40,309 nucleotides of DNA from Acidilobaceae archaeon (lineage in GTDB: Archaea > Thermoproteota > Thermoprotei_A > Sulfolobales > Acidilobaceae). The translations under genes were made by a program, and so were the position numbers. How positions within the stretch are numbered: position 1 is the first letter of the stretch; the number at the start of each line of letters is the position of its first letter. The DNA is taken from positions 1 to 40,309 of the forward strand of contig JALUAM010000050.1 in the NCBI GenBank assembly GCA_027051095.1, written 5' to 3'. This document shows positions 1,441 through 40,309 of the stretch, piece by piece. The notes under the pieces were generated by a model. It searched no databases and was not told where the DNA came from. It was given only the letters and a program-made list of their open reading frames with translations.

Positions 1441-1947
1441 CAATCGCTCTCCGGAAGAAGACCAGATTTCAGCAGCGAGAACTGGTCGAGAGCTATAGAG
1501 GCGACTACAACGTCTATAACAAGGATCCCGTAGGTCTCTAGCACTGCGGCGCTAGCCACCCCACCAGGGCTTCTATAGTCAACGCTAGGGCCGCGCGGCA
1601 ACCGAAAAAGGCGGGGGGCCTAGTCCCGCGGGAATACGTCTATCAAGGCTAGGAAAACCCTAGCCATCACCATATAACTTGCTCCCGCGATTCCAGCCCT
1701 ACTAGAATGAGCCTAGACTGACAGAGGACGTAGATGCCGACGAGAGCCCCCACGGTTATAAGGTCATAGTTGTAAATCCAGAGCATTCTAGCACTAGGCC
1801 CGCCAAGATCGCTGAAAGCGTCCCTCATGAAACAAACTACTCGGAATTAACAATCTAAGCAGCGCCTATAACTATCCATGCAGAAACGGCGGCGAAGGGG
1901 CAGAAAAGTACGCAGACCTTGAGCCCTGCCTGGCGCTCAAGATGCAT
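1437..1947 (-). pseudogene. Decayed DUF998-like membrane protein gene
   Basis: No intact reading frame exists here, but pieces in successive minus-strand frames line up as one protein of about 170 residues. The order is: an ATG at 1947 followed by a hydrophobic stretch containing FAAVSAWIVIGAA; two in-frame TAG codons; a shift to a frame with MRDAFSDLGGPSAR and a second membrane segment (DLITVGALVGIYVL); a TGA and another shift to MVMARVFLALIDVFPRD; a further TAG; then a C-terminal part with LETYGILVIDVVVASIAL ending at a TAA at 1437. The SDLG motif and the arrangement of membrane segments fit DUF998 proteins. At least three stops and two frameshifts make function unlikely. The family name is my recognition of the pattern and is less certain than the fact of decay. 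Confidence 0.7.
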
Positions 1948-2281
1948 CACAATCTAAACTGATACGATATAATGGAGGCTTGTTCTTGCGCGCTAGTAAG
2001 CTGGCTGTAAGGAAGGGTCTTTACTAGGAGACTGTGGCCTCAAGGAGCGACTCGATGAAATATCATTTAAAGACGAGATAGGAGAGACTCTTTCACGCTT
2101 GAGGGGCTTCGGGAAGACCTTAAGGCGCGTGACTAGTTAAAAAGGGGCTAAACGCTAAAAGTTTATCCCCCATTCCGCTCTTCCTACCCGCTTTTAGCTC
2201 TTACTCTTCTCTTACCGGGCGAGGGTCATCCCAGCTCTAGAAGGTTGGTTTTTAAGACCTTGGATTAGCGGTGGCCGGGGG
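1948..2281. other. Intergenic region with no recognisable gene
   Basis: No convincing gene lies here. One plus-strand frame is open from 2000 to 2140 (47 codons, ending at a TAA) and has a charged, helix-like composition (for example ERLDEISFKDEIGETLSRLR), but it has no good start codon and opens just after two consecutive stops. It may be another gene remnant beside the decayed membrane gene. AT-rich promoter-like stretches lie near 2155-2168 and 2247-2259. Confidence 0.4.
2247..2259 (+). promoter_or_regulatory. Probable box A (TATA) promoter for the membrane protein gene at 2282
   Basis: The sequence GGTTTTTAAGACC is centred about 28 bases upstream of the TTG at 2282. This is the usual archaeal spacing from TATA box to transcription start, so the mRNA would be leaderless or nearly so. 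This supports the TTG start. Confidence 0.45.
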
Positions 2282-2942: not shown

Positions 2943-3347
2943 TTGAGTAAAGAGCGCGAGCCAGGGCTCGATAATGTCCTGGCTAGGCCTAAGAGGCTCG
3001 CAATAGCCGCCCTACTATACCTCAGAGGGCCCACTACCATGGCAGAGCTTAGAAGAGCGCTTGGAATGTCATGGGGGGACCTCGACAGCAACCTAAGAGC
3101 CCTAAGAGAGGCAGGCTACGTAGAGGTTAGAAAGATACCGACGCTTAAGGGCCCGAGGACCATGGTAACGCTTACACAGCTGGGCAGAAAGCGCTTCGAA
3201 GAGACAGTAGATATCCTAGAGAGGATAATAGCCGAGGTGAGAAGAGCCAGAAAGACCCAGAGAGGCCCCCAAGGCTCTGGGAGCGCAAGCCCAGGCAAGT
3301 CTAAGATACTAGTCTCTTTAACCGACGAACTCCCAAGCAGGACTTAA
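2943..3347 (+). CDS. Winged-helix transcriptional regulator (HTH_34/MarR-like)
   Basis: This 134-residue protein has a classic winged-helix layout at about residues 18-75: RGPTTMAELRRALGMSWGDL as helix-turn entry, then NLRALREAGYVEVRK as recognition helix, and a beta wing with LKGPRTMVTLTQLGRKRFEE. This matches the small archaeal wHTH proteins related to MarR/ArsR/PadR (HTH_34 type). The C-terminal 35 residues are basic and low in complexity. The TTG start is preceded by a GAGGGGTAGGAG ribosome-binding region and lies four bases after the membrane protein gene, suggesting an operon. No cysteine sensor is visible. The target is unknown; autoregulation of the pair is an inference. Confidence 0.8.
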   Translation: MSKEREPGLDNVLARPKRLAIAALLYLRGPTTMAELRRALGMSWGDLDSNLRALREAGYVEVRKIPTLKGPRTMVTLTQLGRKRFEETVDILERIIAEVRRARKTQRGPQGSGSASPGKSKILVSLTDELPSRT

Positions 3348-37634: not shown

Positions 37635-37712
37635 GGGCCCGTCGTCTAGCCCGGTTAGGACGCCGCCCTCACACGGCGGAGGTCCGGGGTTCAAATCCCC
37701 GCGGGCCCACCA
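37635..37712 (+). tRNA. tRNA-Val (anticodon CAC), CCA encoded
   Basis: The acceptor stem GGGCCCG pairs with CGGGCCC, with discriminator A and encoded CCA (37710-37712). The D-arm contains AGCCCGGTTAGGA, the anticodon arm CCGCCCTCACACGGCGG has the loop CTCACAC with anticodon CAC, and the T-arm is CCGGGGTTCAAATCCCCG. No intron. The sequence right after the CCA encodes an integrase-like C-terminus, so this tRNA probably served as an integration target. Confidence 0.95.
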
Positions 37713-37965
37713 CAGAGCCATTACAGAGCGGTTCTATACACTGGAGCTGCAGGTCCTGCTGGGCCATGCGGCCCGGGAGGTAGTCGAGAAGCACTACCTC
37801 CTCCGCGACCAGATCGAGGACCTGCGCCGGAAGTACGATCTCGCCATGTCTTACGTGCTGTGCCTGGGAGAGGAGGGGGGAGAAGGTGGGTGGTGGCTGA
37901 GCCTACGGCTCCTCACGGCCTCTCTAAGCCCGAGAGGGTGGCTAAGCTCTACCGTAAGAGGATAG
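37711..37965 (+). pseudogene. Remnant of an SSV-type integrase C-terminus (int(C))
   Basis: The open frame running out of the tRNA-Val gene encodes ITERFYTLELQVLLGH, then VVEKHYLLRDQIEDLRRKYD and further. An LGH box followed ten residues later by HY, and then by a basic helix, is the layout of the catalytic His and Tyr region of SSV-type tyrosine integrases (Tyr codon at 37795). The upstream catalytic boxes (Arg, Lys, HxxR) are missing, so this is a remnant only. The stop at 37963 lies inside the next gene. The orientation (sense with the tRNA) differs from SSV1. It is strong evidence for past site-specific integration at tRNA-Val. Confidence 0.6.
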
Positions 37966-38123
37966 TCCCGAGCGGCCGGGTCTACGTGCACAAGCTCGGC
38001 TACGACGCCTACAGGCTCGACGCTATACCTGGCGATGTCAGGAAAGAGTACGAGGAGAAGCGCCGGGCGGCGATGCAGCCCCTCCTGGAGGAGCTGGAAA
38101 AGGCGTGGCTAGGTGAGGGCTAG
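37893..38123 (+). CDS. Small basic protein of unknown function
   Basis: This protein of about 76 residues from the GTG at 37893 (GGAGGGGGG upstream; a GTG at 37860 would add 11 residues). It is basic and helical with LYRKRIVPSGRVYVHKLGYD in the middle, followed by DVRKEYEEKRRAAMQPLLEE. No family is recognised. It overlaps the integrase remnant at its start and meets the minus-strand small gene at its end with a four-base overlap. In the island context it may be a DNA- or RNA-binding accessory protein. Confidence 0.6.
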   Translation: MAEPTAPHGLSKPERVAKLYRKRIVPSGRVYVHKLGYDAYRLDAIPGDVRKEYEEKRRAAMQPLLEELEKAWLGEG

Positions 38124-38317
38124 GAGCGGGCAAGCCTCTTAAGCTCCCTTATGAGGTCCTTGTAGGTTATCTTGCCCAGTGTGAAGTCGTCTAGCAGCCT
38201 CCCCGCCTTCTCCCTGTCCCTCGCCTTGAGGTATAGTCTGTGGATTAGCAGGGTCCTCCTCTTAACTACGGCCTCGTGCCTCGCAACCTCCTTCTTAAGC
38301 GAGGACACCCCAGCCAC
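38120..38317 (-). CDS. Small helical protein downstream of the PIN gene
   Basis: This 65-residue basic helical protein (KKEVARHEAVVKRRTLLIHR, LDDFTLGKITYKDLIRELKR) has a GTG start preceded by GAGGGGGG. It starts 14 bases after the PIN-domain gene and shares its direction. Its size and location make it a candidate antitoxin or partner of the PIN protein, although no known antitoxin fold (AbrB, RHH, Phd) is evident. Function is not known. Confidence 0.6.
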   Translation of the reverse strand: MAGVSSLKKEVARHEAVVKRRTLLIHRLYLKARDREKAGRLLDDFTLGKITYKDLIRELKRLARS

Positions 38318-38331
38318 CCCCCTCTAAGAGG

Positions 38332-38727
38332 CTACTCTACGGGTATAAATATGGGTCTGCGCCCGGTCTGGTCGCTGTAGAACTGGAATAGCCTTAGATC
38401 GCACGTGGCGAGGATGGCGTCTAGCTCTATCGCGGACAGGGCTATCATGACGTCTGCTGGGCCGATCTCCCTAACCCACCTGCCATACCTGCCTAGCCTG
38501 CGCTCCAGCTCCCTAACCCTAGGCCCCTCTGGCTGGCCTAGCATCTCCATCGCCTGCCTCCTCAGCCACTCCCTCCCGCTGGCCTCTATGTCATAGAGGA
38601 CCGCGTACGTCAGGCACGCGTGCTCCAGGATGCACCTGGCTATGCTCCTCAGCGGCTCCCTGCCGCGCGCTGCTACCCATATCACGCATGTGTCAGCCAC
38701 TACCTCACAGCTCCTCCTCGCCGCCAT
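38332..38727 (-). CDS. PIN-domain protein (VapC-like ribonuclease)
   Basis: About 131 residues. The PIN fold is shown by VVADTCVIWVAARG near the N-terminus (first acidic residue, Asp), a central helical part with conserved Glu, ADVMIALSAIELDAILATCD (second acidic cluster) and LRLFQFY at the end. PIN domains are metal-dependent RNases, and many are VapC toxins. The ATG at 38727 overlaps the end of the upstream 232-residue gene, so both come from one mRNA; the next gene is a 65-residue helical protein. No upstream VapB-type antitoxin is visible; the partner may be one of the two neighbours. Confidence 0.72.
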   Translation of the reverse strand: MAARRSCEVVADTCVIWVAARGREPLRSIARCILEHACLTYAVLYDIEASGREWLRRQAMEMLGQPEGPRVRELERRLGRYGRWVREIGPADVMIALSAIELDAILATCDLRLFQFYSDQTGRRPIFIPVE

Positions 38728-39403
38728 ACTCGCCCTCCTCAAGGGCCTTCAGTATCTCCTCCTCGCTCGGCACCCCCTCCCTGCAGAGCACCTCTATGAG
38801 CACGGAGTAGCGTGTGCTCGGGGGTGGCCCCCGGGGCCTGTAAGCCCACTTTAAGCCTTCCCACGCTACTAGCCCGGCCATGGATTCTTTGAGCTCCTCG
38901 CAGTCCCCCCTCCTGGGCGCCGTGAGATATGGGGCTAACTCGGAAACGTCGCCTCTCTCGAGGAACCGCCGGAGGGCCTGCTTGAGGGCCTCAGCGCTAC
39001 GCTTACCCCACCTATATCCCCTAGCGAAGTCGTAGCTCACGCCCTCCTCGCCCCTCTTAACAATCGCCCTGGCGTCCTTCCCCGCTATGCGCCTGGGCAG
39101 CCTCTTCCTCCGCAGGGCGTAGGCTACCAGGCGCTTGATGACCCTAAGCTCAGCCTCGCTAGCCCCGTGTATCCTCGCGAGGCGTACAATGAACCTGAGG
39201 CGCCTCTCCGCCAGGTCCCAGGCCATCCTAATTTTCTTACAATCGTCGTTATCATACGTGTACCCCCTCCGCCAGTCCCTGAGGACCGCCCAGGCCAGCG
39301 CCACAGCCTCGCTAATAGTGTCCACCCCGGGCCTCTCGATCCTCCGGATAAACCAGCCCTCCCTCCGGGCCATGCAGCTATCTCTACCTTGATACACAGG
39401 CAT
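38705..39403 (-). CDS. Uncharacterised Arg-rich protein, 232 residues
   Basis: From the ATG at 39403, with GGAGGTGAGAGT directly ahead, the protein has 232 residues; the frame is open to 39502, but the longer start would run through the upstream gene. It is rich in Arg, Ala and Leu, with helical segments such as KKIRMAWDLAERRLRFIVRL and LRVIKRLVAYALRRKRLPRR. RGDCEELKESMAGLVAWEGL occurs later. No membrane segment or family is recognised. It overlaps the PIN gene by 23 bases and probably belongs to the same operon, so a nucleic-acid or PIN-related role is possible. Confidence 0.65.
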   Translation of the reverse strand: MPVYQGRDSCMARREGWFIRRIERPGVDTISEAVALAWAVLRDWRRGYTYDNDDCKKIRMAWDLAERRLRFIVRLARIHGASEAELRVIKRLVAYALRRKRLPRRIAGKDARAIVKRGEEGVSYDFARGYRWGKRSAEALKQALRRFLERGDVSELAPYLTAPRRGDCEELKESMAGLVAWEGLKWAYRPRGPPPSTRYSVLIEVLCREGVPSEEEILKALEEGEYGGEEEL

Positions 39404-39407
39404 ACTC

Positions 39408-39620
39408 TCACCTCCGGCCCCCAAGCAAGAGGAAGCCCAGGACAGCCGCGGCCAGGATGCCAGCCGGGACCAGCAGCCCACGGAGCCCGGAGCCGCCCTC
39501 ACCCTGGAGGGTGATGGTTTGGACCTGGGTAATGACAGTTGGCTTCCCAGATATCGTTGTGGTTATGATTTTCGTTGTCGTTGTGGTTATCGTTTGGTTT
39601 TCGTGACCGTCTGCCGCCAA
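39408..39620 (-). CDS. Thr-rich tail-anchored membrane protein, probably a surface protein end
   Basis: A 70-residue reading frame starts with TTG. It has a Thr-rich stalk (TITTTTTKIITTTISGKPTV, then VITQVQTITLQ) and one C-terminal membrane segment (LLVPAGILAAAVLGFLLLGG) ending with RR. That plan is typical of archaeal surface proteins held by a C-terminal helix. The upstream reading frame overlaps this one by 34 bases in a frame differing by one, so the two may be one protein split by an indel, or overlapping coupled genes. The next gene downstream (start 39403) follows within five bases. Confidence 0.55.
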   Translation of the reverse strand: MAADGHENQTITTTTTKIITTTISGKPTVITQVQTITLQGEGGSGLRGLLVPAGILAAAVLGFLLLGGRR

Positions 39621-39875: not shown

Positions 39876-40088
39876 GTGCCCGAGGCCGGGCCCCTCGCCT
39901 CGAGGCTGCTACCTTCCTTAGGGCCTCTCTACTGGCCTCTGCAGGCCCTGGTGCTGCTGTGCCTCTACAGGCTGCTTAGGAGGGCGGGGCTCCCCCCGGA
40001 CTGGGCCGCCGCGGTCGCGGCGCTGGGGCCCTGGGCCGCTGGGTGGCATAATGCAGGTTTATTGTTGAGGGGTGCCCCGGGTGTCTAG
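39876..40088 (+). CDS. Small membrane-like protein before the PIN gene
   Basis: This 70-residue protein from the GTG at 39876 has one or two hydrophobic segments (LYWPLQALVLLCLYRLLRRA and WAAAVAALGPWAAGWHNAGL). The gene overlaps the next PIN gene start by 17 bases, so the two are probably translated together. The family is not recognised. Its coding nature is supported by the overlap and by the hydrophobic pattern, but the region is GC-rich, where chance reading frames are common. Confidence 0.45.
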   Translation: MPEAGPLASRLLPSLGPLYWPLQALVLLCLYRLLRRAGLPPDWAAAVAALGPWAAGWHNAGLLLRGAPGV

Positions 40089-40309
40089 CAGGGCCCGGGA
40101 GAGGCGCTGCCGGGACGCGGTCTGCTACGTGAACGCTAACCTGCTGGTAGCCCTGGATAGGAGGGATAGGAGGGCTATAGAATTCGCGGGGAGAAACCGG
40201 GGCTGCCTCTACACTGTAGCAGAGGTAATCGAGGACGAGGTGCCAGGGGCCGCCGAGATAGCCCGGAGGCACGGGATACTAGTTAGGACCGTGAGCCGGG
40301 GGTTGATGG
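40072..40309 (+). CDS. PIN-domain protein, 3' end outside the window
   Basis: The frame from the GTG at 40072 runs to the window end (79 codons). After a basic N-terminus (RARERRCRD), AVCYVNANLLVALDRRDRRA resembles the first PIN strand and helix, although Asn replaces the usual first Asp (YVNANLL). GCLYTVAEVIEDEV has the second conserved acidic position, and AAEIARRHGILVRTVSRG follows. It may be the partner of the small membrane-like gene before it, or one of several PIN toxins of this island. The rest of the catalytic site is not visible here. Confidence 0.6.
   Translation, partial: MPRVSSRARERRCRDAVCYVNANLLVALDRRDRRAIEFAGRNRGCLYTVAEVIEDEVPGAAEIARRHGILVRTVSRGLM

What the first reader, a model, noticed from the sequence alone, without database searches (positions are those of the whole stretch)
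38120..39403. Three-gene minus-strand unit: Arg-rich unknown, PIN ribonuclease, small helical protein
The 232-residue unknown overlaps the PIN gene start, and a 65-residue basic helical protein follows 14 bases later. No usual VapB antitoxin is present, so either flanking gene could be a new type of PIN partner.
Basis: inference. Interest (0 to 1): 0.7.

Follow-up and report, generated by a model that had tools for sequence, protein, structure and literature searches.

The report
Reverse-order PIN toxin–antitoxin-like viral cassette
Inside a small, decayed virus-derived element in a heat-loving Aeropyrum-type archaeon, a predicted RNA-cutting (PIN) gene is followed by a tiny helical-protein gene that accompanies such PIN genes across related archaea; the two look like a toxin and a new type of antitoxin, whereas the large upstream gene is an ordinary virus gene.

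Summary
The three ORFs are real and at the stated positions, but they are not one functional trio. Gene A (38705-39403) is a fusion of two genes that are separate in related elements; [quoted passage not shown] PIN (38332-38727) and the 65-aa protein C (38120-38317) are a two-gene cassette. C belongs to an unlabelled small helical family, found only in one archaeal order among the genomes searched. A PIN lies directly upstream of 36 of 74 C copies, against roughly 1% expected. PIN and C distances correlate (r = 0.70; 0 of 10,000 permutations). Between two related elements the flanks are conserved while exactly the PIN+C block differs. AlphaFold2 of a relative's PIN and C read as one chain gives pLDDT 91 and pTM 0.89. 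Best reading: a VapBC-like type II toxin–antitoxin module in reverse order (toxin first) with a new antitoxin family, carried as cargo by guttavirus-like integrated elements. Toxicity and rescue are untested. Of 24 aligned C-linked PINs, 18 (not this one) carry Asn for the first catalytic Asp.

The parts
38332..38727 (-). PIN-domain (VapC-like) predicted ribonuclease, 131 aa, D-type with all acidic positions
   Evidence: PF01850 23.9 bits; alignments; relative's model matches VapC folds
38120..38317 (-). Gene C, 65-aa small helical protein, proposed antitoxin / PIN partner
   Evidence: family A3/A12 found by profile search, PIN directly upstream in 36 of 74 copies; AF2 PIN-C model of a relative
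38705..39403 (-). Gene A, 232 aa, fusion of two guttavirus-type genes (A-N residues 1-117, A-C residues 116-232); not the PIN partner
   Evidence: separate neighbouring genes in relatives; A-N 51% identical to APOV1 orf14
37878..38123 (+). 3' remnant of a DnaA-like ATPase gene, convergent with C
   Evidence: 88% DNA identity to intact gene on contig C29/L010; intact relative matches phrog_5484
37738..37868 (+). 3' remnant of a tyrosine integrase gene
   Evidence: 85% DNA identity to the integrase gene on L010, which matches phrog_5127 and PF00589
37635..37712 (+). tRNA-Val(CAC), integration target; its 3' part 37663-37709 recurs on C14 (L009 3252-3298) as the far att copy
39408..39620 (-). 70-aa Thr-rich ORF with C-terminal membrane segment, just upstream of A
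   Evidence: the genes upstream of A-N or A-C in relatives are of the same Thr-rich membrane kind
40072..40309 (+). 5' part of a second, N-type PIN-like gene (YVNANLL), continuing on contig C14 and followed there by a 75-aa C-like gene
   Evidence: relatives L040 and L067; Pfam PIN not significant for this copy itself

Best explanation
PIN (38332-38727) and C (38120-38317) form a two-gene type II toxin-antitoxin-like module in reverse order: a VapC-like PIN ribonuclease followed 14 nt later by a small three-helix partner of a new family. C is proposed to bind the PIN protein directly and hold it inactive; when C runs short, the freed nuclease cuts RNA and stops growth, which favours retention of the integrated element or acts during infection. 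Shown here: the genes, the conserved pairing, co-divergence and exchange as one block. Predicted: direct contact. Inferred: RNase activity, inhibition and role. Gene A upstream is a fused pair of virus genes next to which such cassettes are inserted.
For: PIN directly upstream of 36 of 74 C copies, 23 of 33 among the strongest, with PIN remnants at several others, against 1-31 PIN genes per genome, i.e. about 1% by chance. All six loci of the named-genome N-type PIN search carry C. PIN and C distances correlate, r = 0.70, 0 of 10,000 permutations. DNA similarity to L012 covers A-C and the ATPase remnant but not 38124-38697, which is PIN+C; A-C 93% identical, PIN 43%, C 27%. C of C29 and L012 differ by dS 0.05 while the adjacent ATPases differ by dS 1.0. 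PIN-C inserted after orf14 in APOV1-like proviruses, absent in APOV1. AF2 of L064 PIN-C read as one chain: pLDDT 91.3, pTM 0.89; PDB matches are VapC toxins.
Against: The model is of a relative (window PIN 41% and C about 38% identical to it), read through a stop codon as one chain, from ten sequences, with no non-cognate control; interface residues could not be inspected. About half of C copies have no intact PIN upstream and some stand in tandem arrays. No toxicity, binding or RNase data exist. Most C-linked PINs have Asn for the first catalytic Asp, so inhibiting a nuclease cannot be the whole story for the family.
Confidence: 0.62

Rival explanations
1. Gene A, or its A-C half, is the cognate partner of PIN and the three genes act as one operon.
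For: A-C overlaps or abuts the PIN start in the window, L012, L021 and L027, suggesting coupled translation.
Against: A-N and A-C occur without PIN in L013, L014, L016 and APOV1; A-C is 93% identical next to PINs that are only 43% identical; most PIN-C pairs have no A or A-C upstream.
Confidence: 0.08
2. PIN-C is not an addiction-type toxin-antitoxin pair but an anti-virus or superinfection-exclusion module (often with a downstream small membrane protein) in which C is a cofactor or adaptor of PIN rather than an inhibitor.
For: Cassette placed in integrated virus-like elements; small membrane protein follows C in several loci; 18 of 24 C-linked PINs carry Asn at the first catalytic position; a Fic/Doc gene lies near A-C in L014.
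Against: The window pair has no membrane protein after C and its PIN keeps the acidic residues; no PADLOC match; no infection data.
Confidence: 0.18
3. The cassette is a decaying remnant with no present function in this genome.
For: Integrase and ATPase are reduced to 3' ends and the element is only about 4.7 kb; PIN-C remnants are common elsewhere.
Against: A, PIN and C are intact with normal codon use; dN/dS about 0.3 for PIN and C against L063.
Confidence: 0.1

Closest known systems
VapBC type II toxin-antitoxin systems (PIN toxin VapC)
   Same: PIN-fold toxin with the acidic positions, small co-directional partner gene 14 nt away, predicted direct contact, mobile cassette behaviour
   Different: Partner is encoded after the toxin and is not an RHH, AbrB, Phd, DUF433, COG2880, COG1753, UPF0175 or MerR type listed for PIN in PMC2701414; it has no recognised DNA-binding domain
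Aeropyrum pernix ovoid virus 1 (Guttaviridae, Betaguttavirus; HE580237)
   Same: A-N matches orf14 (51%), a wHTH ORF matches orf5 (42%), DnaA-like ATPase of the sister element C29 matches orf19 (30%); integration at a tRNA gene
   Different: Element is about 4.7 kb instead of 13.8 kb, uses tRNA-Val rather than tRNA-Leu, lacks most virion genes and carries PIN-C cassettes absent from APOV1
VbhA-type antitoxins and SHOCT-like domains
   Same: A short helix-turn-helix-like hairpin ending in G-x-I-x-x-x-E-A-x-x-x-L; weak profile similarity (10 of 26 members to SHOCT-like, 4 of 26 to VbhA)
   Different: All matches weak; partner is PIN, not Fic; whole-protein architecture differs

Membership tests
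VapBC type II toxin-antitoxin | PIN-domain toxin with the acidic active-site residues | tested here: met
   PF01850 above cut-off; D, D (for E), D, D at the aligned positions; relative's fold matches VapC
VapBC type II toxin-antitoxin | Adjacent co-directional partner gene conserved with the toxin | tested here: met
   C downstream of PIN in 36 of 74 family copies; 14-nt gap here
VapBC type II toxin-antitoxin | Antitoxin of a known VapB family (RHH, AbrB, Phd and others) | tested here: not met
   No such domain in A or C
VapBC type II toxin-antitoxin | Antitoxin gene precedes toxin gene | tested here: not met
   C follows PIN in the window and in the relatives
VapBC type II toxin-antitoxin | Toxin and antitoxin form a complex | tested here: inconclusive
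   AF2 of a relative's PIN-C as one chain: pTM 0.89; no non-cognate control, no experiment
VapBC type II toxin-antitoxin | Toxin arrests growth, antitoxin rescues | not testable with these tools
   Needs expression assays
Guttaviridae (host element) | Orthologues of APOV1 genes and tRNA-gene integration | tested here: met
   orf14 and orf5 matches in the element; att repeat at tRNA-Val
Guttaviridae (host element) | Major capsid protein and complete genome of about 14-20 kb | tested here: not met
   Element is about 4.7 kb; no match of the element to the other APOV1 ORFs
VbhA antitoxin family (PF18495) | Significant profile match and Fic partner | tested here: not met
   4 of 26 members, best E 0.0045, window copy none; partner is PIN

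The most novel reading that the evidence does not exclude
C defines a new class of PIN partner shared by Asp-type and Asn-substituted PINs, and the PIN-C cassette, often followed by a small membrane protein, is a virus-borne exclusion or defence system in which a substituted and an intact PIN of one element may act together, rather than a simple addiction module.
Probability: 0.15. Interest if true: 0.78.

Novelty: new variant of a known kind. Interest (0 to 1): 0.58.

Why it matters
PIN (VapC) genes are abundant in archaea. A lineage-specific partner family encoded after the toxin, and carried as swappable cargo by archaeal viruses, would explain some PIN genes that seem to lack an antitoxin, give direct candidates for toxicity/rescue tests in hyperthermophiles, and make testable why most PINs of this family have Asn at the first catalytic position.

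Tried and rejected
Searches of phage records and IMG/VR contigs with the PIN proteins found nothing. Alignments with N-type PIN rows or many C-only rows misaligned and were not used. Gene A as the PIN partner: rejected (conserved without PIN). Gene A fold: low overall confidence (pTM 0.54) and no PDB match. C as a member of VbhA or SHOCT: only sub-threshold similarity; C profile has no solved relative. D-type profile hits L136 and L138 are ordinary VapC-like genes without C; L134 has only a weak C-like ORF (E 0.0016) and was not counted. PIN-C fold against viral structures: no good match. Literature searches found no description of this pair.

Full report
Observation. Codon use is normal for all three. 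The PIN call is real but close to threshold: PF01850 23.9 bits against a cut-off of 23.6. A and C have no Pfam, NCBIfam or PADLOC label and neither is a VapB-type protein.

Setting. The window is contig C50 of a 76-contig genome. Its last 127 bases are identical to the end of contig C14 and to no other place, so the two were read as joined (inference from the assembly). On the window side lies tRNA-Val(CAC), 37635-37712; a 47-base stretch of its 3' part recurs at 97.9% identity on C14 at 3252-3298. Between them are about 4.7 kb: 3' remnants of an integrase and a DnaA-like ATPase gene (intact relatives on contig C29), C, PIN, A, a Thr-rich membrane ORF, then on the plus strand a second PIN-like gene, a second C-like gene, a small membrane protein, two HTH proteins and an 81-aa ORF. 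This is a tRNA-integrated, decayed mobile element. Genome G012, of the same genus as the window's genome, carries APOV1 proteins at 100% identity, which points to genus Aeropyrum; named MAGs with this PIN family are Acidilobaceae or Desulfurococcales.

Gene A. Nineteen of 214 genomes of the order have relatives of A, nearly always as two separate genes, A-N (residues 1-117) and A-C (116-232), adjacent in several. [quoted passage not shown] So A is a fused pair of virus genes. Its AF2 model is confident only over A-N and matches no solved fold.

Gene C. Relatives of C were recognised on C29 and, directly downstream of a PIN, in L012, L018, L021, L027 and L030. Profile searches found the family in 30 of 229 genomes of the class, in up to seven copies, and in 9 of 398 genomes drawn from the phylum, all of the window's order. 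Of 74 unique copies with at least 420 nt upstream, 36 have a PIN match directly upstream, 29 of them over most of the domain; several others have PIN fragments there that the profile missed. With 1-31 PIN hits per genome about 1% would be expected by chance. The PINs next to C are highly divergent (18-43% identical to the window's), yet PIN and C distances over 24 pairs correlate (r = 0.70; 0 of 10,000 permutations reached it).

Cassette behaviour. DNA similarity between the window and L012 runs through A-C (38698-39056) and through the ATPase remnant (37878-38123), with nothing detected in between, which is PIN plus C. A-C is 93% identical in protein (dS 0.94) while PIN is 43% and C 27% identical. 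C of C29 and C of L012 are 98% identical with dS 0.05 although the neighbouring ATPase genes have dS 1.0. In the APOV1-like proviruses L030 and L018 a PIN-C pair stands after the orf14 homologue, where APOV1 has none. PIN and C therefore appear to move together and independently of A (inference from these comparisons).

Structure. In L064 the PIN stop codon and the C start keep one frame, so PIN and C could be read through TGA as one 216-residue chain. AF2 gave pLDDT 91.3 and pTM 0.89, with C as three helices. A pTM this high, on a chain whose last 60-odd residues are C, implies a firm placement of C against PIN. The PDB matches of the model are VapC toxins. Caveats: a relative rather than the window pair, an artificial short linker, ten sequences, no non-cognate control, no inspection of the interface.

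Mechanism. Best supported: a type II toxin-antitoxin-like module with a VapC-like toxin and a new downstream antitoxin. Shown: pairing, co-divergence, exchange as one unit. Predicted: direct contact. Inferred: RNase activity, inhibition and biological role. It works like VapBC but is not filed as VapBC proper, because two tested features (known VapB family; antitoxin gene first) are not met. The PIN partners listed in the main survey of such systems (PMC2701414) do not include it.

Open points. About half of the C copies lack an intact PIN upstream and some form tandem arrays (L054, L090, L092). Of 24 aligned C-linked PINs, 18 have Asn for the first catalytic Asp; the equivalent D7N change was made in Shigella VapC (PDB 5ed0, listed). 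The window's PIN keeps Asp; the second PIN of the same element has Asn. A small membrane protein follows C in several loci.

Noticed in passing
24 aligned C-linked PINs, e.g. L018, L030, L038, L087: 18 of 24 PINs next to C carry Asn in place of the first catalytic Asp (YVNTN, YVNTS, YVNAN types), suggesting inactive or altered PINs that still keep the C partner.
   Followed up: partly
window 40072-40309 continuing on L009 5470-4850 (minus): A second PIN-like gene (Asn type) with its own 75-aa C-like gene lies in the same element, so one element carries two different PIN-C modules; L021 likewise has one intact and one remnant module.
   Followed up: partly
L027, L064/L133, L079, L083, L087, L116, L141, L148 downstream of C: A small membrane protein of about 115-120 aa follows C in several loci of both Asp and Asn types, a possible third component absent after the window's C.
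   Followed up: partly
L054, L090, L092, L073: C-family genes occur in tandem arrays of two or three without an intact PIN.
   Followed up: no
L014:109-549 (minus): A Fic/Doc-family ORF (PF02661, above cut-off) lies downstream of A-C in a related element, where other elements carry PIN-C.
   Followed up: partly
L062, upstream of 1867-2049 (minus): A repeated motif in the translation upstream of this C gene looks like a CRISPR array; not tested.
   Followed up: no
L010 (contig C29) 1-3961: Second related element in the same genome with intact integrase and ATPase genes and a C gene at the contig edge; its PIN would lie beyond the edge.
   Followed up: partly
window 38705-39403: Gene A is a natural fusion of two virus genes that are separate in relatives.
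   Followed up: yes
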